DNA from: Planctomycetota bacterium
GTDB lineage: Bacteria; Planctomycetota; OFTM77
Length of the DNA: 44,316 bases
Assembly (NCBI GenBank): GCA_029260795.1
Contig: JAJDCO010000026.1
Coordinates: 1 to 44,316, forward strand
Direction: 5' to 3'
Made by a program: the position numbers and the translations under genes
Notes under the pieces: model-generated
Seen by the model: only the letters and a program-made list of their open reading frames with translations
What the model was told of the DNA's origin: nothing
Databases searched by the model: none
Shown: one piece after another, positions 11,727 to 38,287 of the stretch
Layout of the letters: every line of letters begins with the position of its first letter
How positions within the stretch are numbered: the first letter of the stretch is position 1

Positions 11727-12458
11727 ATGTCCGAATCGGGATTGATGATCGAGGCGGTAGGGCTGAGTAAGTTCTACGGAGGCTTCGCCGCGATCCAGGA
11801 CGTGACGTTCTCCGTCGCCAAGGGCGAGATCGTTGCTTTCTTGGGTCCGAACGGAGCGGGCAAGTCGACGACGATGAAGATCTTGACAGGTTTTCTGACG
11901 CCCAGCGCCGGAACGGCGCGCATCGCGGGTCGGGACGTCTTGACGGATCGCATCAAAGCGGCGGCACACATCGGCTACTTGCCGGAGAACGGCCCTCTGT
12001 ATCCCGACATGACGCCTCGGAGCTTCCTGAAGTTCCTAGGCGACGCGCGGGGTTTGACGGGGAGCAAGCTGTCGGAGCGGCTGGAGAAGGTGATCGCCCA
12101 GTGCGCCTTGCAGTCCGTGGTCGACAAGCCGATCCACAAGCTGTCGAGAGGCTATCGGCAGCGAGTCGGCATGGCGCATGTGCTGCTGCACGAGCCGGAC
12201 GTGCTGATCATGGACGAGCCGACCAGCGGTCTCGATCCGAACCAGATCCGCGAGGTTCGGCAAACGATCCGCGAGATCGGTAAGACCAAGACGATCCTGC
12301 TCTCGACCCACATTCTGCAGGAGGTGGACGCGGTGGCGGATCGCACGATCTTCATCAACGAGGGTCGAATCGTCTTCGACGGCCGCTCTCGCGAGATGTC
12401 CCAGAGTGACGAGTCCCTCGAGCAATCGTTCCACCGCTTGACGAGCACGGAGGCCTGA
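11727..12458 (+). CDS. ABC transporter ATP-binding protein, GldA-like
   Basis: 243 residues from the ATG at 11727, preceded by GAGAGG; the longer reading from 11682 lacks family similarity. It has Walker A GPNGAGKS (about 39-46), signature LSRGYRQRVG, Walker B VLIMDEPTSGLDP and the switch His in LLSTHILQEV. The sequence is the GldA/CcmA/NatA type that energises ABC-2 permeases. The next gene starts 1 nt after its stop and is a permease fused to a GldG-like protein, so the three genes form one transporter. GldA in Bacteroidota supports gliding motility. Homologues outside that phylum have no settled substrate. Confidence 0.93.
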   Translation: MSESGLMIEAVGLSKFYGGFAAIQDVTFSVAKGEIVAFLGPNGAGKSTTMKILTGFLTPSAGTARIAGRDVLTDRIKAAAHIGYLPENGPLYPDMTPRSFLKFLGDARGLTGSKLSERLEKVIAQCALQSVVDKPIHKLSRGYRQRVGMAHVLLHEPDVLIMDEPTSGLDPNQIREVRQTIREIGKTKTILLSTHILQEVDAVADRTIFINEGRIVFDGRSREMSQSDESLEQSFHRLTSTEA

Positions 12459-12459
12459 C

Positions 12460-15135
12460 ATGGCGCTGCAAACGCATGTGATTCGGGCGGTCTTCAAGCG
12501 AAACGTCCTGTCGTACTTCGCGAGCCCGACCGGTTACGTCTTCATCACGATCTTCATCTTCCTCGGTGCGATCGCCGCCTTCTGGCAGGAGAGCTTCTTC
12601 GCCCAGAACCTGGCGAATCTGGACACGCTGAACGAGGTCTTTCCTTTCCTCCTCCTCTTCTTCATTCCGGCCGTCACGATGAGCCTGTGGGCGGAGGAGC
12701 GCCGACAGGGTACCGACGAGCTCTTGTTCACGCTGCCCGCACACGACTACGAGGTCGTGCTCGGCAAGTACCTGGCCGCGGTCGCGATCTACACGATCGC
12801 GCTGTTCTTTTCGCTGAGCAACGTGGTCGCCTTGACGATGCTCGGGGAGCCCGACGTGGGGCTGATGCTGGGGACGTACTTCGGCTACTGGCTGTTCGGC
12901 TCGGCGATGATCGGTGTGGGGATGATCGGCTCGCTGCTGGCGAGCAACGTGACGATCGGCTTCATCGTCGGCGCCGCGCTCTGCGCCTTGGTGGTCTTCG
13001 CCGATGAAGCGGCCGTCTTCGGAACCGGCCTGGCCGAGGTCTTCGAGCGCTACACGGCGGTGCCGCTCTTCGAGCAGTTCGCAACCGGCATCATCTCGAT
13101 CACGGGCCTGGTCTACTTCACGGGCCTGGCGGTGTTCGCGTTCATGGTCAACGTCGCACTCCTGCGGCGCCGTCACCGCGGTGGCCAGAGCGTGCTCGCC
13201 GCGCGCGGCTTCCACGACTTCGTGCGCGTGACCGCCGTGTTCGTAGCGTTCATCAGCTTGAGCATCGTGGCCGGTCGCTTCGATTGGCGTCCGGACGTGA
13301 CTGCCGAGCGGCTGCACTCGCTCTCCTCCGAGACGGACGAGCTGATCGGCAAGATCGATCCGAAGACGCCCGTCTACATCCAGGCGTTCTTCAGCCCCGA
13401 GGTGCCGCAGAGCTATTCCGAGAAGCGGAACAACCTCGTCAACTTGCTACGCCAATACGATCAGATGGGTGGCGAACGCATCGTGGTCAAGATCCACGAC
13501 ACCGAGCGCTTCTCCGACGAGGCCCGGCAGGCGCAGGAGAAGTTCAACATCCGCGCCATGCCCGTCTACGTCAGCGAGGGCGGCCGCGGCAAGCAGGACG
13601 AGATCTATCTCGGCCTGGTGTTCACCTCGGGGCTCGAAGAGGTGATCATCCCGTTCTTCGATCGTGGCCTGTCCGAAGAGTATGAGCTGACGCGCTCCAT
13701 CGGCGTCGTCGCGCGCGCTGACCGCAAGAAGGTCGGCGTCCTCGTGACCGACGCGGACCTGCTCGGTGGCTTCGACTTTCAGACCATGCAGTCGCGGCCC
13801 GAATGGTCGGTGATCGGTGAGCTGAAGAAGCAGTACGAGATCGAGCGCGTCGACCCGGCCAGCGACTACCCGGCGGACATCGACGTGCTGCTGGCGGTCC
13901 TGCCGTCCTCTCTGAATCAGGAGCAGCTCGATCGCTGCAAGGACTGGGTCGAGTCCGGCAATCCGACCTTGATCTTCGACGATCCGCTGCCTCTCGGTGC
14001 GCGTGGCGAATTGATGGCGATGGCTCCGAGCGAGCCGAAGCCCCGCCCGCAGCAAAACCCGTTCGGAGGCGGAGGCGGCCCCCCCCCGGAGCCCAAAGGC
14101 AACATCCGCGGCTTCCTGCAGCAGATCGGCATCTCCTGGTCGATCGGTGACCTGGTGTGGGACACCTACAACCCGCACCCCGAGCTGCAGAACCTGCCGC
14201 CCGAGTTCGTCTTCATCGGTGTCAACAGCGGCTCCGACATGCCGTTCAATGAGAACCACCCCGTCACCTCAGGGCTCCAGGAGATCGTTCAGATCTACCC
14301 GGGCCACATTCAGGAGGCGCCGGGGAGCGGAGTGACGTTCACGCCGCTGCTGAAGTCGTCTCAGGAGTCCGGTCGCGTGCAATACAGCAGCGTGATCGAG
14401 CGGAGCTTCTTCGGCGCTCGCATCAACGACCGCGTGCCGCACCTCATCGACGATCGCAGCTACACGATCGCCGCCGAGGTCGAGGGCGCCCTCGCTGCTT
14501 CGGGCGAGGGGGACGCGCCGAGATCGGTGAAGGCCATCTTCGTGGCCGACATCGACATGATCTCCGAGCAGTTCTTCGCGCTGCGCCGTCAGGGTGTCGA
14601 AGGTCTCCAATTCGACAACGTCACCTTCGTTCTCAACGCCGTCGACGTCCTCGCCGGCGACGCCTCGTTCGTCGCGCTGCGCAAGCAGCGACGGCGTCAC
14701 CGGACGCTCTCCGAGCTCGAGAAGGAGATTCGGGTTCACGAGGAAGCCCGTCTCGCCAAGCAGGAGCAGGCCGAGAATGCCGCCAAGGAAGCCCTCCAGC
14801 GCGCTCAGGTGGCCTTCCAGACCAAGGTGCAAGAGCTCGAGCAGCGAACCGATCTTGATGAGCGCGCCAAGGCCATCCAGATCGAGGCCCTGCGATCGAC
14901 CGAGCAGCGCAAGCTCGACGTGAAGTCGAATCAGATCGAGGACGACAAGGAGCGCGCCATCGAGCTGAGCAAGATCGACATGGAGCGCGAGATCCTCAAG
15001 ATCCAGTCGCGCATTCGAGTGTTGGCCGTGGCGCTTCCGCCCATCCCGGCGCTGCTGCTGGGAATCTTCGTTTTCATGATCCGTCGAGGCCGAGAGAAAC
15101 GAACGATCTCCGAAGCGCGTCAGGCGAGGAGGTGA
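12460..15135 (+). CDS. Fused ABC-2 permease (GldF-like) and GldG-like auxiliary protein
   Basis: 891 residues. Residues 1-235 are an ABC-2 permease with about six membrane segments (opening with FITIFIFLGAIAAFW) and the WAEERRQGTDELLFTLP motif after segment 2. Around 248-268 is another membrane helix, followed by a large extracytoplasmic GldG-type region (about 270-730): DITAERLHSLS-like WRPDVTAERLHSLSSET, YIQAFFSP, and DVLLAVLPSSLNQEQLDRCKDWV. Residues about 735-850 are a charged coiled coil. A last membrane helix (IRVLAVALPPIPALLLGIFVFMI) is followed by a basic tail. GldF and GldG are separate genes in Bacteroidota, so this is a one-chain version. A Gly/Pro-rich linker (PFGGGGGPPPEP) lies near 530. 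Confidence 0.88.
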   Translation: MALQTHVIRAVFKRNVLSYFASPTGYVFITIFIFLGAIAAFWQESFFAQNLANLDTLNEVFPFLLLFFIPAVTMSLWAEERRQGTDELLFTLPAHDYEVVLGKYLAAVAIYTIALFFSLSNVVALTMLGEPDVGLMLGTYFGYWLFGSAMIGVGMIGSLLASNVTIGFIVGAALCALVVFADEAAVFGTGLAEVFERYTAVPLFEQFATGIISITGLVYFTGLAVFAFMVNVALLRRRHRGGQSVLAARGFHDFVRVTAVFVAFISLSIVAGRFDWRPDVTAERLHSLSSETDELIGKIDPKTPVYIQAFFSPEVPQSYSEKRNNLVNLLRQYDQMGGERIVVKIHDTERFSDEARQAQEKFNIRAMPVYVSEGGRGKQDEIYLGLVFTSGLEEVIIPFFDRGLSEEYELTRSIGVVARADRKKVGVLVTDADLLGGFDFQTMQSRPEWSVIGELKKQYEIERVDPASDYPADIDVLLAVLPSSLNQEQLDRCKDWVESGNPTLIFDDPLPLGARGELMAMAPSEPKPRPQQNPFGGGGGPPPEPKGNIRGFLQQIGISWSIGDLVWDTYNPHPELQNLPPEFVFIGVNSGSDMPFNENHPVTSGLQEIVQIYPGHIQEAPGSGVTFTPLLKSSQESGRVQYSSVIERSFFGARINDRVPHLIDDRSYTIAAEVEGALAASGEGDAPRSVKAIFVADIDMISEQFFALRRQGVEGLQFDNVTFVLNAVDVLAGDASFVALRKQRRRHRTLSELEKEIRVHEEARLAKQEQAENAAKEALQRAQVAFQTKVQELEQRTDLDERAKAIQIEALRSTEQRKLDVKSNQIEDDKERAIELSKIDMEREILKIQSRIRVLAVALPPIPALLLGIFVFMIRRGREKRTISEARQARR

Positions 15136-15138
15136 GTC

Positions 15139-17028
15139 ATGAGTGATACCGTCAAGACACTGATCTACATCGGCATCGCGGTCGTCTGTGGTGTCGGAGC
15201 TTGGCTCCTGGCCGACCCGGCTCCGAGCGAGCCACCGTTCTTCGATGACCAAGGTGAAGTCTTCTTCCCAGGATTCGACGACCCGCGACAGGCCGCGGCT
15301 CTCGAGGTCATCGCGTTCGACGAAGAGACGGCCACCGCCCGACCCTTCAAGGTCGAGGTGAAGGACGGGCTCTGGACCATCCCGTCCCATCACGGCTATG
15401 CGGCCGACGGCAAGGATCGTCTCGCCAAGACGGCCGGCGGCGTGATCGCCCTTCGCAAGGACCAGGTGATATCCGACAGCCCCGAGATGCACACGCAGCT
15501 CGGACTCGTCGACCCGCTGGACTCGAGCCGCACCGAGCTCACCGGCTGGGGCAAGCGCGTTACGCTCAAGAATGCTGCCGGCAACGTCCTCGCCGATCTC
15601 ATCGTCGGCAAGCCGCTCGAAGGCGATCGCACCGGCATGCGCTACGTGCGTGTACCCGGCAAGAGCCGCGCCTACGCCGTCAAGATGGAGGTCGATCTCT
15701 CGACGCGCTTCGCCGATTGGATCGACACCGATCTCGTCACCGTCTCGTCCGCGGACTTCGAGAAGATTGAGCTCGACCGCTACTCCGTCGACGAGCGCAA
15801 TGGTGCCATCGTCGAAGGCGAGAAGGTCGTCCTCACCAAGGACGACACTAGCAAGTGGACGATGGCCGATCTGCCGGAGGGACGCGAGCTCGACACGGGC
15901 AAGATCAGCTCGCTGACCAGTGCCATCGATTCGCTGGCGATCGTCGGTGTGCGCCCCAAGCCCGAAGGACTCACGGGGGATCTCACTCAAGAGCAGAACC
16001 GGCGCGTCAATCCCCAGTCGCTGCTTTCGCTGCAGAACAAGGGCTACTTCTTCACCCGGGACGGCAAGCTGGTCTCGAATGAAGGCGAGCTGCGCTCGTG
16101 GACGAAGGACGGCGTGCGGTTGACCTTCCGCTTCGGCGAAGTGCTGTACGGTTCAGGTGACGACGTGACGGCTGGCAGTGAGTCCGAGGGCGCCGAGAAG
16201 ACCGCGTCCGAAGGCGACGAGAAGCCCGCCGGAGTCGAGAACCGCTATCTGTTCATCTCTGCCGAGCCCGACACGGAGTCTCTCGAACCGGTGGCGCCTC
16301 CCGAAGGACTCGACCTGGAATTCTACGCCGAGTGGAAGCAGAAGCGAGACGCCGGCGAGACTGAAGGCGAGACCGAGGGTGAGACCGAGACACCTGAGGA
16401 GGAGCTTCCCGAAGAAGAGCGAAAGCGACGCTCGGAGCAAGAGGCGCTGTCCCTCGAGTATCAGGCGTCGCTCGACGCGCGACAGATCACGATCGAGGAA
16501 ACGGAGAAGAAGGCCGACGAGCTCAGCGAGCGCTTCGCGCAGTGGTACTACGTCATCTCCGGAGACAGCTTCTCGAAGCTACACCTCAGCCGCGAAGATC
16601 TGCTGAAGGCACCCGTCGAGGACGAGGGTGAGGATGCGACCGGCGACCTGCCACCGGTGCTCCCGACCGAGGACGGCCAGGACCCCGAGTCGCCCGACGA
16701 GGAGGGTGCGCCGCCGACCGCTGACGAAGGAGACGGTGAGACGCCGCCCGCCGAAAGTGGCGAGGGCGAGCCCAAATCGGAAGAGGGCGACGAGAAGCCG
16801 GCACCGACCGAGGGCGGCGACGGGGGCGAGAAGCCTCCGACCCCCCAGGGCGGCGACGGGGGCGAGAAGCCTCCGACCCCTAAGGGCGGCGACGGGGGCG
16901 AAAAGCCTCCGACCCCCCAGGGCGACGACGGGGGCGAAAAGCCTCCGACCCCCCAGGGCGACGACGGGGGCGAGAAGCCTCCGACCCCCCAGGGCGACGG
17001 CAACACCCCGGGCGACGACGGCCGCTAG
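15139..17028 (+). CDS. DUF4340-type membrane-anchored protein with a 12-residue repeat tail
   Basis: 629 residues, 3 nt after the GldFG-like gene. One N-terminal membrane helix (about 8-25) anchors a large extracytoplasmic part. Repeated strands with W-x-I/W-x-M patterns (DGLWTIPSHHG, SKWTMADLPEG) and the stretch on rates such as RTELTGWGKRVTLKNAAGNVLADLIVGKPL are typical of DUF4340 proteins. These regularly accompany GldA/F/G-like operons outside Bacteroidota. About 340-450 is an acidic low-complexity insert. The C terminus is five copies of a 12-residue DGGEKPPTPQG-type unit. Function of the family is unknown; a cell-envelope scaffold for the transporter is an inference. Confidence 0.82.
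   Translation: MSDTVKTLIYIGIAVVCGVGAWLLADPAPSEPPFFDDQGEVFFPGFDDPRQAAALEVIAFDEETATARPFKVEVKDGLWTIPSHHGYAADGKDRLAKTAGGVIALRKDQVISDSPEMHTQLGLVDPLDSSRTELTGWGKRVTLKNAAGNVLADLIVGKPLEGDRTGMRYVRVPGKSRAYAVKMEVDLSTRFADWIDTDLVTVSSADFEKIELDRYSVDERNGAIVEGEKVVLTKDDTSKWTMADLPEGRELDTGKISSLTSAIDSLAIVGVRPKPEGLTGDLTQEQNRRVNPQSLLSLQNKGYFFTRDGKLVSNEGELRSWTKDGVRLTFRFGEVLYGSGDDVTAGSESEGAEKTASEGDEKPAGVENRYLFISAEPDTESLEPVAPPEGLDLEFYAEWKQKRDAGETEGETEGETETPEEELPEEERKRRSEQEALSLEYQASLDARQITIEETEKKADELSERFAQWYYVISGDSFSKLHLSREDLLKAPVEDEGEDATGDLPPVLPTEDGQDPESPDEEGAPPTADEGDGETPPAESGEGEPKSEEGDEKPAPTEGGDGGEKPPTPQGGDGGEKPPTPKGGDGGEKPPTPQGDDGGEKPPTPQGDDGGEKPPTPQGDGNTPGDDGR
16819..16998 (+). repeat. Coding tandem repeat, five 36-bp units
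   Basis: Five in-frame 36-bp units starting at 16819, 16855, 16891, 16927 and 16963 encode DGGEKPPTPQ-type repeats (unit 2 has Lys for Gln). They are nearly identical at the DNA level, so the array is probably recent and prone to length change. Confidence 0.9.
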
Positions 17029-17060
17029 ACCCATCCAGGTTCAATCGGACCCTTTGACGA

Positions 17061-17096
17061 CGCGGCGTCGCACCGACCGGTGCGGCGCCGCGTTTT
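17061..17096 (+). terminator. Rho-independent terminator after the Gld-type operon
   Basis: A 14-bp stem (17061-17074 with 17079-17092, one G-T pair) with a GACC loop is followed by TTTT (17093-17096) and CGTT. It lies 32 nt after the DUF4340 stop. The rest of the gap to 17257 includes a small GCCGGC-TTC-GCCGGC hairpin near 17119 and no gene. Confidence 0.9.
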
Positions 17097-17257: not shown

Positions 17258-20122
17258 ATGGAACTGCAACCCGAGCTCGTTCGGATCATCGAGGTCTTGG
17301 AGCATCACGGTTTCGATCGTGTGGTGCGATCGGGATCCCGGCTGCCGGCCGCGGAGCGCTTTGCGCCCAGCCTCGAGCCGATGCGAGAGCGGCTGCGCTC
17401 CGCCGGTTCGAAGAGCCTCCTCGTCGTCGGTGCCAGCGGAGTCGGTAAGTCGGCTCTGCTCTCCGAGCTCGCCCGCGGGCTGCTCGAGGGCGACTCGCCG
17501 CAGCTCATGGTGCAACTCTCCACGGGCGACATCCTTCGTGGGGCGAAGTACATCGGTGAGTGGGAGGAGCGGCTCGGCCAGCTCATCGCGATCGCGAAGC
17601 GCCCGGCGCCGGTCGTGCTGTGGATCAGCAATCTCAACGACATCGTCGGAGCGGGTCGCGTCGAGGGCGGCAACCAAGACGTGGCGCAGCTTCTCGTGCC
17701 TCATCTCGAGTCGGGGGACATCGCGGTGGTCGGGGAGTCGACCCCGGCCGCGCTGACAGCCGGGCTCGGTGCCCATCCGAACTTGGAGCGACTCTTCCTG
17801 CGGGTGAACTTGGAGCCCACGACTGAGGCCGAGACGCTGGTGATCCTCGAGGGGGTGCGCGAGCGGTGGCAGCAGACGATGCCGAACCTCGACGTCCCTT
17901 CCGAGTCGAGTGAGCGGGCGCTCGAGCTTTCGAGGCTGCTCCGTCCGGTCGGGGAGCAGCCTGGGCGCGCCGTCGATCTCTTCGATGGTGTCCTGGCGGC
18001 CGCGAGCCAGACGGGTCGTACCGACGTCGCGCCCGCTTTCGTGGCCCGGATTCTCGCCGAGTGGACCGGGCTGCCGCTGTGGCTGTTCGATGATGACGAG
18101 CCGCTCGATCTCGAGGAGCTTCAGCGCTTCTTCGAGGAGCGCGTGCTCGGTCAATCCGAGGCCGTCTCGACGATGGTCGACGTCATCACGCTCGTGAAAG
18201 CGGGCCTCCAGGACCCGAGCCAGCCACTGGCGGTTCTCTTCTTCGTTGGACCCACCGGAGTCGGGAAGACCGAGATCGCCAAGGCTCTGGCCGAGCGCTT
18301 GTTCGGCAGCGCCGATCGCATGACCCGGATCGACATGAGCGAGTTCAGCGATTGGAGCGCTCCCGCTCGCCTGATCGGGTACGGCGGACAGCCGGGTGCG
18401 CTGACGGAGCGTGTGCGGCAGCAGCCGTTCTCGGTCGTGCTGCTCGACGAGATCGAGAAGGCCGCCGAGCCCACGTTCGACTTGTTTCTACAGGTGTTCG
18501 ATGACGGCCGTCTCACGGACGGCCGCGGAGTGACCGTCGACTTCCGGCAGACGATCGTCGTGATGACCTCGAACCTGGGCTCGGACCGAATGGGCCGTGA
18601 GACGCTCGGCTTCCACGAATCGAGTGACGGGGTCGCCGACGATGATCCGCTGCTCGAGTCCGTGCATCAATTCTTTCGTCCCGAGTTCGTCAACCGCATC
18701 GATCGGGTCGTGCCGTTCCGGCCCTTGAGCGCTGACGCCCTGGCCAAGATCGCACAGCGAGAGATCGGGAAGATCCTCGCCCGGTCGGGCCTGACGCGGC
18801 GGCGGCTCTCGGTCGACATCGATCCCTCAGTCGTGTCTCTGCTGGTGCGGAGCGGTACCAGCACGCGCTATGGCGCGCGACCGATGAAGCGCGCGGTCGA
18901 GCGTTTAGTGCTCTTGCCGCTAGCGCGCCGGATCGCCGTCGGCAAGGCGCCGGCCGGGGGCGTGCTGCAGCTTCGCGCTGCAGGGGCGAAGGTCGTGGCC
19001 GAGCTCGTGCGCGATCCGCTCGACGACGAGGTCGACCGGCTCAAGGAGCGCTTCCGTATTCCCAGCCCCTTGCCCGAGCGTCGAGGCTCGCTTTCGGCGG
19101 CAGAGCTCGAGCGCTGGGTGGAGGAGCTGCGCGACAAGTCCCGAGCGATGCAGCTTCAGCTCGAAGAGCTGGAGCTCACGAGTGAGAAGAGCGAGCTGGT
19201 CGAGCGGACCCAGCGCCATGACTTCTGGGATGAGCCGACACGCGCTCGGCGGATCCTGTCGCGCATCCACGCCCTCGAGTCGCTGGTCGAGAACGTGCAG
19301 CGCGTCTCGCGGCGGGTCGAGGACCTGTTCGAGTGGGTGCCGCGAGTGGCGAGGAGTCGGCAGCGTCCTCGCCTCGAGCGCGCGGTCGAGCGGTATCGCG
19401 ACGTCGCACGCGATCTCGAGATGGTCGAGTTCGACCTGAGCTGCGGGGAGCCGATCGACCGACTGGATGCGTTCCTCAAAGTCACGGCCGTACCGGGTCG
19501 GAGCCGCACGCAGCGAGACATCGTGGCGGCGCTGGCCACCATGTATCGAAACTGGGCGAACACCAAGGGCTTTGACGTCTTCATTCTCGACGACTCGGTC
19601 ACGGATCGAGGCGGGGAGGACACCATCACGCTGGTGCTCGAAGGGGCGTGTGCGTACGGTCTGCTGAAGGCGGAGCGTGGCCTGCATGTGATCGACGAGA
19701 TCGGGGCGCCGGGTGGCAAGCGGCGGCTGCGAGCGTATGCGCGCGTCGAGGTCTGGCCCAGTGATGACGAGGAAGTCGAGCCCGAGCGGTTGGAAGCGGC
19801 CGACCTGCCGGAGACGGGCTCGGCGAATCGCGGTCGGTTCGGCAATGAGCGCCGGACGCGGATGAGGCTCTTTCACGAGGCGAGCGGGCACGGGGTCGTT
19901 GCGCGAACGCATCTTCCGGTCGAGCGCTGCCGGGAGCTCTTGGCGCGGCTGCTGCGCGAGATCGTGCGCGACAGCGAGGATGAGCCCTCGGAGCGGCTGA
20001 TCGTGCGTCGCTACAGCCTACCTCCCGAGGGGCGAGTGCGAGACACGCGGAGCGGTCTGCAGACCTCGGCCGTCGAGCAGGTGCTGGGGGGTGACTTGGA
20101 CCGATTCCTCTTGGTGCCGTGA
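17258..20122 (+). CDS. Clp/Hsp100-type AAA+ ATPase fused to a release factor 2-like module lacking GGQ
   Basis: 954 residues, and the outstanding gene of the window. D1 AAA+ module (about 40-270): Walker A GASGVGKS (58-65) and the pore region GAKYIGEWEERL (95-106). Its Walker B has WISNLNDIVGAG (122-133) where ClpB/ClpC have FIDELHTLVGAG, so the Asp-Glu pair is lost. D2 (about 290-585): Walker A GPTGVGKT (331-338), intact Walker B VVLLDE (393-398), sensor TSN (437-439) and sensor-2 GARPMKR (539-545). There is no Clp N-domain and no ClpB middle domain.
Residues about 600-954 follow release factor 2 end to end: FWDEPTRARRILSRI (656-670), LDAFLKVTA then MYRNWANTKGFDV (762-774), AYGLLKAERGLH (799-810), and the ending RVRDTRSGLQTSAVEQVLGG (926-945), like RF2 IKDLRTGVETRNTQAVLDG. 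The codon-reading SPF is replaced (EIGAPGGKRR) and GGQ is absent. Inferred role: ribosome- or nascent-chain-linked unfoldase. Confidence 0.9.
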   Translation: MELQPELVRIIEVLEHHGFDRVVRSGSRLPAAERFAPSLEPMRERLRSAGSKSLLVVGASGVGKSALLSELARGLLEGDSPQLMVQLSTGDILRGAKYIGEWEERLGQLIAIAKRPAPVVLWISNLNDIVGAGRVEGGNQDVAQLLVPHLESGDIAVVGESTPAALTAGLGAHPNLERLFLRVNLEPTTEAETLVILEGVRERWQQTMPNLDVPSESSERALELSRLLRPVGEQPGRAVDLFDGVLAAASQTGRTDVAPAFVARILAEWTGLPLWLFDDDEPLDLEELQRFFEERVLGQSEAVSTMVDVITLVKAGLQDPSQPLAVLFFVGPTGVGKTEIAKALAERLFGSADRMTRIDMSEFSDWSAPARLIGYGGQPGALTERVRQQPFSVVLLDEIEKAAEPTFDLFLQVFDDGRLTDGRGVTVDFRQTIVVMTSNLGSDRMGRETLGFHESSDGVADDDPLLESVHQFFRPEFVNRIDRVVPFRPLSADALAKIAQREIGKILARSGLTRRRLSVDIDPSVVSLLVRSGTSTRYGARPMKRAVERLVLLPLARRIAVGKAPAGGVLQLRAAGAKVVAELVRDPLDDEVDRLKERFRIPSPLPERRGSLSAAELERWVEELRDKSRAMQLQLEELELTSEKSELVERTQRHDFWDEPTRARRILSRIHALESLVENVQRVSRRVEDLFEWVPRVARSRQRPRLERAVERYRDVARDLEMVEFDLSCGEPIDRLDAFLKVTAVPGRSRTQRDIVAALATMYRNWANTKGFDVFILDDSVTDRGGEDTITLVLEGACAYGLLKAERGLHVIDEIGAPGGKRRLRAYARVEVWPSDDEEVEPERLEAADLPETGSANRGRFGNERRTRMRLFHEASGHGVVARTHLPVERCRELLARLLREIVRDSEDEPSERLIVRRYSLPPEGRVRDTRSGLQTSAVEQVLGGDLDRFLLVP

Positions 20123-20302: not shown

Positions 20303-22291
20303 ATGTCGAATCAGCGAGACATCCGAGCCTGGACCGTTCAAGACAGCTCCGAGCTGTTCAACGTGAACGGTTGGGGACAGGGCTTCTTCTCGATCAATGC
20401 GGCCGGAAACGTCCAGGTGACGCCCGATGGTCCTGACGGAGGGGCGATCGATCTCAAGGAGCTGATCGATCACCTGCAGCAGCGTGGGATCCATCTGCCG
20501 GTCTTGCTGCGATTCAGCGGAATCCTCCATCACCGGGTCAAGGGCATCAACGAGAGCTTTCGTCGCGTCATCGCCGAGGCGGAGTACCGCGGAAGCTACC
20601 GAGGCGTCTACCCGATCAAGGTCAATCAGCAGCGTCATGTGGTCGAGGAGCTGGTCGAGTTCGGCCAAGACTACGACCTCGGTCTGGAGGCGGGCTCGCG
20701 TCCCGAGCTGATGGTGGCGATCGCGTTGGTCGACAACCCGAAAGCGTACATCATCTGCAACGGGTACAAGGACGCGGCGTACATCGAGACGGCGCTCTTG
20801 TCGCGCAAGCTCGGGCGTCAAACCGTGATCGTCATCGATCGGTTCGAGGAGCTCGAGACTGTGCTGCGGTTGAGCCGCGAGCTCGGCATCCGGCCCGTGA
20901 TCGGAGTTCGAGCGAAGCTGGCATCCCGTGGCGCCGGCCGTTGGCAGGAGTCCGGAGGTGACCGCTCGAAGTTCGGCCTGACCTCGTCCGAGCTGGTGGC
21001 CGTGGTCAAGCGCTTGAGAGAGGCGGATCACCTCGACTGCCTGCAGCTCCTCCACTTTCACATCGGCTCCCAGGTCAGCGACATCCGGGCCATCAAGTCC
21101 GCCCTGCGCGAGGCGGGCCGCATCTTCGTCGAGCTCCATGGTCTCGGGGCTCCAATGACGATCCTCGATTGCGGCGGTGGCCTGGGCGTGGACTATGACG
21201 GCAGCCAGACCAAGTTCCACTCCTCGATCAACTACACGCTGGAGGAGTACGCGAACGACATCATCTACGCGATCCGCGATGCGTGCGATGAGAAGGACGT
21301 TCCTCACCCCGACATCGTCACGGAGTCGGGCCGCGCCCTGGTCGCACACCATTCCGTGCTGATCTTCAACGTGCTCGGCGTCCATCGGACGGTCAAGGAA
21401 ACCGTGCCCACCGAGCCGACCGAGGACGAGCACGACCTCGTCACCTCGATGTTCGACGTGTGGCGAGACGTGACGATCAAGAACTTCCAAGAGGCGTATC
21501 ACGACGCCCTCCAGTTCAAAGAGGAGTCGATCAACGCCTTCAACCTCGGGATCCTGGACCTGCAAGACCGAGGGCGGATCGAGGAGCTCTTCTTCGCGAT
21601 CTGCGAGCGCATCCTCCGGCTCGTCCGCGACCTCGACTACGTTCCCGATGAGCTCGACTCGCTCGAGCGCTCGCTGGCCGACACCTACTACTGCAACTTC
21701 TCGGTCTTCCAGTCGATGCCCGATCACTGGGCGGTCAAGCAGCTGTTCCCGGTGATGCCGATCCACGGACTGCACCAAGCCTTGAAGCGACGTGGCATCC
21801 TGGCCGACTTGACCTGCGACAGTGATGGCAAGGTCGACAAGTTCATCGACCTCCGAGCGCAGAAGGACTTCCTCGAGCTTCCCGAGTGGGGCGACAGTCC
21901 GCTCTGGCTCGGTGCTTTCCTGGTCGGCGCCTACCAAGAGATCCTCGGGGACTTGCACAACCTGTTCGGCGATACGGATGCTGTCCACGTGAGCCTCTCC
22001 GAGAGCGGTGGCTATCGAATCTCGCACGTGGTGGCCGGTGACACCATCCAAGAGGTGCTGGGCTACGTTGCCTACAGCAAGGTTGAGCTCGTCTCGCGGA
22101 TACGGGCAGCGGTCGAGCGAGCGCTCGATGAGAAGCGCATCAACCTGGACGAGTCCGGTCGTCTCGTGCGACGTTATGAGCAGAGCTTCGCCGAGATGAC
22201 GTATCTCGAGCCCCCCCGATGCCGGCCGATTCCAGCTCCGACCCCCAGCCCGGTCATGAACCCCCAGCAGCCGGTCTCGCCGTCGCCCTGA
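20303..22291 (+). CDS. speA: Biosynthetic arginine decarboxylase
   Basis: 662 residues, the usual SpeA length. It is a PLP enzyme that decarboxylates arginine to agmatine for polyamine synthesis. The PLP lysine is in GVYPIKVNQQ (Lys106). The barrel motif HFHIGSQ, the glycine-rich phosphate-binding GGGLGVDYDG and the active-site Cys464 in YYCNFSVFQS are all present. Start ATG at 20303 with GAGGTG 5-6 nt upstream. The last 40 residues are a Pro-rich tail. The next gene follows after 42 nt and may be co-transcribed. No agmatine-processing enzyme is in the window. Confidence 0.96.
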   Translation: MSNQRDIRAWTVQDSSELFNVNGWGQGFFSINAAGNVQVTPDGPDGGAIDLKELIDHLQQRGIHLPVLLRFSGILHHRVKGINESFRRVIAEAEYRGSYRGVYPIKVNQQRHVVEELVEFGQDYDLGLEAGSRPELMVAIALVDNPKAYIICNGYKDAAYIETALLSRKLGRQTVIVIDRFEELETVLRLSRELGIRPVIGVRAKLASRGAGRWQESGGDRSKFGLTSSELVAVVKRLREADHLDCLQLLHFHIGSQVSDIRAIKSALREAGRIFVELHGLGAPMTILDCGGGLGVDYDGSQTKFHSSINYTLEEYANDIIYAIRDACDEKDVPHPDIVTESGRALVAHHSVLIFNVLGVHRTVKETVPTEPTEDEHDLVTSMFDVWRDVTIKNFQEAYHDALQFKEESINAFNLGILDLQDRGRIEELFFAICERILRLVRDLDYVPDELDSLERSLADTYYCNFSVFQSMPDHWAVKQLFPVMPIHGLHQALKRRGILADLTCDSDGKVDKFIDLRAQKDFLELPEWGDSPLWLGAFLVGAYQEILGDLHNLFGDTDAVHVSLSESGGYRISHVVAGDTIQEVLGYVAYSKVELVSRIRAAVERALDEKRINLDESGRLVRRYEQSFAEMTYLEPPRCRPIPAPTPSPVMNPQQPVSPSP

Positions 22292-36877: not shown

Positions 36878-38287
36878 GTGCGATGGACGACTCTGATTCT
36901 CATCGGCTGCTACTGGTGTCTCGTTGCTTGTGACGAGGGACGGGAGTCTCTGCGCGACACGCGCTATTGGATCGAGCGCACGAAGAAGACGCCTCCGAGC
37001 GAGTTCATCGAGCAGCTCGATGACGAGGATCCACTGCGTCGTCGCCGCGCCATTCAGAGCCTGGTGATCGTCGGTCCCAAGACGAGCGCGGTCGTGCCCG
37101 CGTTGATTGGGATGCTGTCCGACGAGAATGCCGAGGTGCGTCGGGACGCGGCCGCCAGCTTCGCGAGCATGGCCGAGGCGGCTGCGAAGGCGATCGCACC
37201 GCTGCTCGCAAGGCTCTCCGATCCGAGCACCGAGGTGCGCGGGGCGGTCGTGTTCTCCCTCTCGCGTATGGCGGCCTTGCATCCCGGTCGCTTGCGCGAG
37301 CCGTTGATCACTGCGCTGCGTCACAAGCACACCACGATGCAGGTCCATGCTGCATTCGGATTGGGGCAGATCGGAGACGATGAGTCCCTGGCTGCGCTCG
37401 TGGATGCGCTCGGCGGCGAAACGCCGACCCCGGTCGATGTCCGAAGGGCGTTGGCGGAGGCGATCGCGGAGCAGGGGGAGCGAGCGGTTCCCTTTCTCGA
37501 GCTGGCGCTCGAGGAGCCCGGGCGTCGTCTGGGAGCGATCGAGACGCTCGCTCGTCTTGGCCCGCTGGCTCGTCCGCACGCCGAGACGATCGTCGCCTTC
37601 CTGGAGCCGACCAGCGATTTCGACCTTCAGCGCGCGATCTCCCAGCTTGTGGCCGTCACGGGCGTCGACCCCGAGATCGGTCTGTCGCGACTCCGTCCTC
37701 TGCTGGCGTCGGAGCGTCAGTCCGTCCAGATCGCGGCCGGAAAGGCTGTCGCACGATTGGAGGGGGCGGCATTGCCCATGCTGCGCGAGATCATCCACGG
37801 TCGCGGCGATGAGCTTTCCGGCGCTCTGCGCGCGGTGGGCGAGATGACGCGGCGAGACGCAGAGCTCGAAGCCGGAATCCTCGCGCTGCTGTCGGCCGAT
37901 GACCTCCCGCCGGACCCGAAACGTCGCGCGGTCCGCGCGCTCGGAAAGATTGCCGTGCATCCCGATCGGGTGCTGGGAGCCCTCTTACCGTGGCTGCAAG
38001 ACGAGGACGCTCGGCTTCGTGCCGGCGTAGCCTCCGCTTGCGGTGACCTGGGACCACAAGGCATCGGCGCGGTTCCGCTGTTGGTGGCCGTGCTTCGCGA
38101 CGATTCGGATTCGGGTGTGCGCAATTGCGCGGCAGATGCACTGGGGCGAACCGGTCGTCAGGCCGACGGCACGATTCACCCGATGGCGAAGCACGTCGCG
38201 GTGCCGGCACTCCGCGAGCAGCTGGCAATCGAGGCCACGCCGACGACACGTTCAGCCATCGAGAAGGCACTCGAGTCGCTGCAGTAG
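36878..38287 (+). CDS. HEAT-repeat lipoprotein
   Basis: 469 residues, GTG start at 36878. A lipoprotein signal peptide ends in L-V-A-C (Cys18), so the protein is predicted to be lipid-anchored. From about residue 45 it is a chain of HEAT-like helix pairs, e.g. LRRRRAIQSLVIVGP, VVPALIGMLSDENAEVRRDAAASFASM, LLARLSDPSTEVRGAVVFSLSRM and AVRALGKIAVHPDRVLGALLPWLQDEDARLRAGVASACGDLG. Such solenoids usually bind other proteins. It converges with the minus-strand formiminotransferase gene, with only 5 bp between the stops. Confidence 0.88.
   Translation: MRWTTLILIGCYWCLVACDEGRESLRDTRYWIERTKKTPPSEFIEQLDDEDPLRRRRAIQSLVIVGPKTSAVVPALIGMLSDENAEVRRDAAASFASMAEAAAKAIAPLLARLSDPSTEVRGAVVFSLSRMAALHPGRLREPLITALRHKHTTMQVHAAFGLGQIGDDESLAALVDALGGETPTPVDVRRALAEAIAEQGERAVPFLELALEEPGRRLGAIETLARLGPLARPHAETIVAFLEPTSDFDLQRAISQLVAVTGVDPEIGLSRLRPLLASERQSVQIAAGKAVARLEGAALPMLREIIHGRGDELSGALRAVGEMTRRDAELEAGILALLSADDLPPDPKRRAVRALGKIAVHPDRVLGALLPWLQDEDARLRAGVASACGDLGPQGIGAVPLLVAVLRDDSDSGVRNCAADALGRTGRQADGTIHPMAKHVAVPALREQLAIEATPTTRSAIEKALESLQ

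What the first reader, a model, noticed from the sequence alone, without database searches (positions are those of the whole stretch)
17258..20122. Clp/Hsp100 unfoldase fused to a catalytically dead release factor 2 module
One continuous frame joins a two-ring AAA+ Clp ATPase to a whole RF2-like protein, from the N-terminal PCRF region to the final RF2 tail. D1 has lost the Asp-Glu of Walker B; D2 is intact. The RF2 part has lost both the stop-codon-reading SPF and the peptide-releasing GGQ, so it is unlikely to terminate translation. A ribosome-docking arm attached to an unfoldase suggests a rescue or nascent-chain extraction device. I do not know of an established function for this fusion, and I cannot check whether it has been described.
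Basis: partly seen in the sequence, partly recalled or inferred. Interest (0 to 1): 0.93.

Follow-up and report, generated by a model that had tools for sequence, protein, structure and literature searches.

The report
Clp motor carrying dead release factor
Some planctomycete bacteria encode a Clp-type ATPase, predicted to feed the ClpP protease, fused to a descendant of translation release factor RF2 that has lost the motifs for reading stop codons and releasing proteins and now likely serves as an arm that brings the motor to ribosomes.

Summary

D1 has lost Walker B but kept its aromatic pore loop; D2 keeps its ATPase motifs but has lost the GYVG pore loop. So one ring appears to burn ATP and the other to grip.

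Best reading: a ClpP-partner motor tethered by a non-terminating RF2 arm. That the tether is to ribosomes is inferred, not shown: codon- and PTC-contact motifs are gone, gene neighbours say nothing, and normal RF1 and RF2 coexist. Six searches of open-access papers found no description.

The parts
17059..17094 (+). Strong GC-rich hairpin followed by CGUUUUCGUU, terminator-like, between the upstream ABC-transporter genes and this gene
   Evidence: -36.1 kcal/mol, z -4.8, 0 of 200 shuffles as stable; the pattern scan lists part of it, but its count of 3 sites is near the shuffled mean of 1.6
17258..20122 (+). The fusion gene, 954 aa (P0001), stop included
   Evidence: same start and junction as P0002
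17408..18013 (+). AAA+ ring D1 (residues about 51-252), Walker A kept
17540..17563 (+). D1 pore loop GAKYIGEW (95-102), aromatic kept
   Evidence: 26 of 26; 116 of 120, 4 gaps
17612..17632 (+). Degenerate D1 Walker B VVLWISN (119-125)
   Evidence: Asp-Glu lost in 26 of 26; Asp 2 and Glu 5 of 120 at these columns
18107..18982 (+). AAA+ ring D2 with small domain (residues about 284-575)
18248..18271 (+). D2 Walker A GPTGVGKT (331-338)
   Evidence: Lys in 120 of 120
18377..18397 (+). Shortened D2 loop GYGGQPG (374-380) where other Clp proteins have GAPPGYVGxxxGG
   Evidence: canonical loop in 0 of 26 fusions and 6 of 7 comparison proteins; 0 of 120
18434..18451 (+). D2 Walker B VVLLDE (393-398)
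18605..18613 (+). LGF (450-452), ClpP-type docking loop between sensor 1 and Arg finger
   Evidence: xGF in 26 of 26; GF 111 and GL 9 of 120; function of the loop from PMC5540906 and PMC9035409 (passages)
19049..19096 (+). Linker (about 598-613), low confidence in the model
   Evidence: pLDDT under 50 at 598-610
19097..19441 (+). RF2 domain 1 (PCRF helical bundle, about 614-728)
19466..19762 (+). RF2 domain 2 (about 737-835), SPF and AGGTEA lost, GxxAxGLLxxExGxH kept
19790..19978 (+). Remodelled RF2 domain 3 (about 845-907), GGQ replaced by RGR
20000..20119 (+). RF2 domain 2/4 tail (915-954), best-conserved part of the module

Best explanation
The gene encodes one protein that joins a two-ring Clp/Hsp100 ATPase to an RF2-derived module without the stop-codon-reading and peptide-releasing motifs, and it is predicted to work as a ClpP-feeding motor whose RF2 arm likely docks it on ribosomes. 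Shown by sequence, tree or model: the fusion, one clade of modules, the RF2 fold, loss of release and decoding motifs, purifying selection in two pairs, intact D2 ATPase motifs, dead D1 Walker B, aromatic D1 pore loop, missing D2 pore loop, conserved ClpP-type docking loop. Inferred: a hexamer; ATP turnover in D2 alone, moving the D1 loops that hold the substrate; transfer of the substrate to ClpP bound under D2. Inferred with least support: RF2 arms on flexible linkers recruit the machine to ribosomes through domains 1 and 2/4, with the PTC-reaching domain 3 dispensable, so that proteins at stalled or terminating ribosomes can be removed.
For: ClpP side: (L/I/V/F)GF loop in 26 of 26 fusions, present in three ClpC-type comparison proteins (L002, L004, L028) and absent in L003, L006 and L115; PMC5540906 states that ClpA binds ClpP through IGL/F and that ClpB/Hsp104 lack it (passage); ClpP in 40 of 40 fusion genomes. 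Motor: D2 Lys, Asp, Glu, Asn, two Arg in 120 of 120; D1 aromatic 116 of 120; D1 Walker B lost. Arm: RF2 fold, one clade 100/100, dN/dS 0.113 and 0.052 in two pairs, better retention of RF2-invariant residues in domains 1 (0.45) and 4 (0.53) than in 3 (0.22), deletion of most of domain 3 with the tail kept in L019, L020, L021, L026.
Against: All the RF2 motifs recalled as stop-codon or PTC contacts are lost (AGGTEA, SPF, GGQ). The better-kept residues may be no more than the fold's core. The gene stands apart from translation genes and its neighbours are not conserved. It follows D2 on the presumed ClpP side, where it could hinder ClpP. ClpP occurs in most bacteria, so 40 of 40 is weak (control genomes: 10 of 14). 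SmpB (36 of 40) and RF1 and RF2 are there anyway. Loss of the D2 pore loop casts doubt on processive unfolding. Charge change of the module (less acidic in domains 1, 2 and 4, less basic in 3) decides nothing.
Confidence: 0.38

Rival explanations
1. The RF2 module has been wholly exapted: it is a partner- or substrate-recognition scaffold of a ClpP-type protease and no longer touches ribosomes.
For: Loss of the codon- and PTC-contact motifs with the fold core kept; domain 3 deleted in some members; further decay of a related C-terminal region in tandem Clp paralogues; no translation neighbours.
Against: Domains 1 and 4 keep about half of the RF2-invariant residues, and the fold matches free and pre-accommodated RF2 over the whole module.
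Confidence: 0.37
2. The module acts on its own motor: it caps or gates the ClpP side, or holds the ring together in place of the dead D1.
For: It follows D2, near the LGF loop, on a low-confidence linker; D1 has lost Walker B and Arg fingers.
Against: Nothing in the sequence demands it; the RF2 fold is not a known oligomerisation or gating domain (recalled).
Confidence: 0.12
3. The module competes with RF2 or RF3 partners and tunes termination; the Clp part is the effector that removes stalled factors.
For: Descent from RF2 with the RF3- and L11-side domain 1 kept (the contacts are recalled).
Against: Patchy presence (40 of 392 genomes) and no link in gene order.
Confidence: 0.07
4. Assembly artefact or decaying gene.
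For: Most sources are metagenome-assembled genomes; the copy in G018 (L019) is interrupted by a stop.
Against: Same architecture in 40 of 392 genomes from 15 family-level groups and in 108 of 115 database proteins; dN/dS well below 1 in both halves in two pairs.
Confidence: 0.02

Closest known systems
ClpA/ClpC (ClpP-partner Hsp100 ATPases)
   Same: Two AAA+ rings, D2 motifs, no long M domain, (I/L/V)GF-type docking loop in the same place
   Different: D1 Walker B and D2 GYVG loop lost; no Clp_N domain among the hits shown; RF2 module added
ClpB/Hsp104 disaggregases
   Same: Best NCBIfam score by E-value (5e-114)
   Different: No M domain in the four fusions shown (P0001, P0004, L018, L026); has the docking loop that ClpB lacks
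Peptide chain release factor 2
   Different: GGQ, SPF and AGGTEA lost; part of a Clp protein; intact RF2 coexists
ArfA/ArfB and tmRNA-SmpB rescue
   Same: Would also act at stalled ribosomes if the arm binds there (inference)
   Different: No GGQ, no tag; SmpB coexists in 36 of 40 genomes
Vms1 with Cdc48 in eukaryotic ribosome quality control
   Same: Pairs a release-factor relative with an AAA+ ATPase (PMC6514570, passages)
   Different: Unrelated release-factor superfamily, two proteins instead of one, and Vms1 is described there as a peptidyl hydrolase
Tandem Clp-like triplets of planctomycetes (found here)
   Same: Dead D1 Walker B, missing D2 pore loop (7 of 7 proteins); C-terminal region of gene 1 matches the fusion modules (HH probability 97%, E 4e-11)
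   Different: Direct match of gene 1 to the host's RF2 is only 24%, Pfam sees no PCRF in the four scanned, and gene 3 lacks the region in five of six operons

Membership tests
ClpA/ClpC ClpP-partner ATPases | IGF/L-type ClpP docking loop between D2 sensor 1 and Arg finger | tested here: met
   26 of 26 GF; GF 111 and GL 9 of 120
ClpA/ClpC ClpP-partner ATPases | Both rings with Walker A and B | tested here: not met
   D1 Walker B lost in 26 of 26
ClpA/ClpC ClpP-partner ATPases | Aromatic pore loops in D1 and D2 | tested here: not met
   D1 kept, D2 lost
ClpA/ClpC ClpP-partner ATPases | NCBI equivalog score cut-off | tested here: not met
   ClpA 357.4 bits, cut-off 993.15
ClpA/ClpC ClpP-partner ATPases | Degrades proteins with ClpP | not testable with these tools
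   ClpP gene present in 40 of 40 genomes is permissive only
ClpB/Hsp104 | Coiled-coil M domain | tested here: not met
   Absent in P0001, P0004, L018, L026, present in the host's L003
Class I release factor RF2 | RF2 fold | tested here: met
Class I release factor RF2 | GGQ catalytic motif | tested here: not met
   Gln in 0 of 20; 0 of 120 at the column
Class I release factor RF2 | SPF stop-codon motif | tested here: not met
   S 3, P 2, F 0 of 20
Ribosome rescue or quality-control factor | Binds ribosomes | not testable with these tools
   No binding data; gene neighbourhood uninformative

The most novel reading that the evidence does not exclude
A bacterial, single-polypeptide counterpart of the Vms1-Cdc48 idea: an RF2 paralogue turned into a non-terminating ribosome probe carries a ClpP-coupled motor, in which D1 grips and D2 burns ATP, to ribosomes so that incomplete or misbehaving nascent proteins are destroyed at their source.
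Probability: 0.22. Interest if true: 0.92.

Novelty: new variant of a known kind. Interest (0 to 1): 0.76.

Why it matters
If the RF2 arm binds ribosomes, this would be a bacterial AAA+ protease tied physically to the translation machinery, and would make co-translational ClpP degradation directly testable. Even if it does not, it is a clear case of a core translation factor turned into a domain of a Clp machine, and of a two-ring Clp motor in which ATPase and grip appear to be split between the rings.

Tried and rejected
Gene neighbourhood: an all-against-all comparison of called genes in the window, 20 fetched stretches (14 around fusions, 6 around related Clp genes) and L039 found no family beside the fusion gene in more than two loci; the widest other groups span 3 of 22 loci, and the two genomes of one genus (G042, G082) share neighbours as expected. 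My gene caller missed or split some fusion genes (G043, G018), so this is rough.

Replacement of trans-translation: rejected, SmpB in 36 of 40 fusion genomes; the four misses (G200, G213, G233, G297) are under 90% complete.

Anti-phage defence: PADLOC hits of P0001 (DolB, PDC-M37B, mad8) lie on the D2 AAA region, mad8's range running on to 659, and look like generic AAA similarity.

Distribution outside Planctomycetota is therefore open.

Literature: six searches of open-access PMC gave no description of the fusion. I read passages of PMC6514570, PMC9035409 and PMC5540906; of the rest I saw listings only.

Rows left out: one search has 28 fusion rows, one duplicate (L147 = P0005) and one partial (L019); searches use the other 26. 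The RF1/RF2 tree and retention counts use 20, dropping also L018, L020, L021, L026 (domain 3 cut) and L145, L148 (near copies). An earlier tree with 26 fusions and 7 RF2s gave the same single clade. Of the loci, L153, L157 (frame not resolved by my script), L159, L164, L167 (cut by contig ends) were not used. The 120-protein set is P0001-P0005 plus 115 hits of one clade's query; Arg in place of the GGQ Gln holds for that clade, while L011, L145, L152, L155, L156 and P0003 have Val there. A regular-expression search found seven stray GGQ triplets after D2 in the 120, none followed by xVN and none at the domain 3 column.

Full report
OBSERVATION. The ORF at 17258-20122 (+) reads 954 codons without interruption. 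Pfam finds AAA (54-152), AAA_2 (323-483), ClpB_D2-small (490-568) and PCRF (642-811, E 3.8e-18). NCBIfam finds ClpB and ClpA models and prfB (622-841, E 8.9e-35), with prfA much weaker (2.6e-13), none of them over its cut-off. PDB sequences of RF2 match up to 614-951. P0002, from a planctomycete MAG, is 64% identical with the same start and junction.

DISTRIBUTION. All genomes scanned are of the window's phylum; named database hits are Planctomycetes/Planctomycetota, Planctomycetia and Gemmataceae, and one scanned genome carries P0005 itself (L147), so I take the host to be a planctomycete. A profile of 17 fusions against 392 genomes of the phylum gives 40 genomes, the window's own included, with a high-scoring member (E <= 1.5e-219); in 37 the alignment passes position 1000 of 1187. 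The 40 lie in 15 family-level groups and 28 genera (table). The C-terminal region of a relative (L119) finds 115 proteins; by eye all carry AAA_2 and 108 carry PCRF. Relatives often have N-terminal HEAT repeats (for L119; Pfam columns); P0001 has about 50 residues before D1.

THE MOTOR. D1 has Walker A (Lys 114 of 120) but no Walker B Asp-Glu (26 of 26; Asp 2 and Glu 5 of 120), and keeps an aromatic pore loop (26 of 26; 116 of 120, 4 gaps). D2 keeps Walker A Lys, Walker B Asp-Glu, sensor 1 Asn, Arg finger and sensor 2 Arg in 120 of 120, but the PPGYVG pore loop of 6 of 7 comparison Clp proteins is absent in 26 of 26 and 0 of 120 have it there (two have such a string somewhere). The seventh comparison protein, L041, looks like gene 3 of the triplets below. 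No M domain is seen in the four fusions shown. Between sensor 1 and Arg finger lies LGF, aligned with LGF of the ClpC-type proteins L002, L004 and L028 and missing in L003, L006 and L115. PMC5540906 says that ClpA binds ClpP through IGL/F and that ClpB/Hsp104 lack it (passage); PMC9035409 describes IGF loops as flexible (passages), and this segment (448-461) has pLDDT under 50 in the full model. ClpP is present in 40 of 40 fusion genomes, as in most bacteria.

CONTEXT. Upstream lie an ABC-transporter ATPase, an ABC_transp_aux protein and a DUF4340 protein (11727-17028), then a strong terminator-like hairpin, then this gene, then an arginine decarboxylase (20303-22291). No sigma-70-like promoter was found by the simple scan. 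Nothing ties the gene to translation, and neighbours are not conserved.

MECHANISM. I commit to a ClpP-partner motor in which D2 hydrolyses ATP and D1 grips, tethered by RF2-derived arms, most likely to ribosomes. The ClpP link rests on the conserved loop, the split motor on motif losses shared by all aligned members. The ribosome link rests only on RF2 descent, the kept fold, and better retention of domains 1 and 4 than of the PTC-reaching domain 3. Against it stand the lost contact motifs, the presumed position on the ClpP side and the lack of translation neighbours; the charge change decides nothing. The ribosome version (0.38) is thus about level with a non-ribosomal adaptor role (0.37).

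KNOWN OR NEW. It is not an RF2 (GGQ and SPF tested, not met), not a ClpB (no M domain) and not a canonical ClpA/ClpC (D1 Walker B and D2 pore loop tested, not met), but it should work most like the last. Six paper searches found no description. I rate it a new variant of a known kind.

Noticed in passing
L133:7080-15864, L135:5222-14197 (minus strand), L136, L137, L138; L039:89-10391: Tandem arrays of three Clp-like ATPases (about 1100, 1080 and 750 aa; in L039 1202, 1192 and 1015) with dead D1 Walker B and no D2 pore loop; the C-terminal region of gene 1 matches the RF2 modules of the fusions (HH probability 97%), that of gene 2 weakly (84%), and gene 3 lacks it in five of six. They may be a further decayed branch of the same family.
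   Followed up: partly
L007:1458-1463 (G000:C30): The host's own RF2 gene has CTTTGAG, an in-frame TGA at the place of the known RF2 programmed +1 frameshift (the mechanism is recalled), so a normal, self-regulated RF2 coexists with the fusion.
   Followed up: partly
L005 (G000:C84:117520-121425): A 470-aa host protein with a single D2-type Clp AAA+ domain, 42% identical to D2 of P0001 over 288-579.
   Followed up: no
window 11727-17028: ABC-transporter ATPase, ABC_transp_aux/DUF7088 membrane protein and DUF4340 protein in a row, resembling gliding-type exporters (the resemblance to gliding genes is recalled).
   Followed up: no
window 36878-38287: A 469-aa protein made largely of HEAT repeats; HEAT repeats also form the N-terminal part of many fusion relatives, though not of P0001.
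   Followed up: no
fusion members in L011, L145, L152, L155, L156, P0003 against the rest: The place of the catalytic Gln of GGQ has been refilled clade by clade: Gly-Arg in one clade (Arg in 100 of 101 rows), Gly-Val in another, which hints at new selected roles for that loop.
   Followed up: partly
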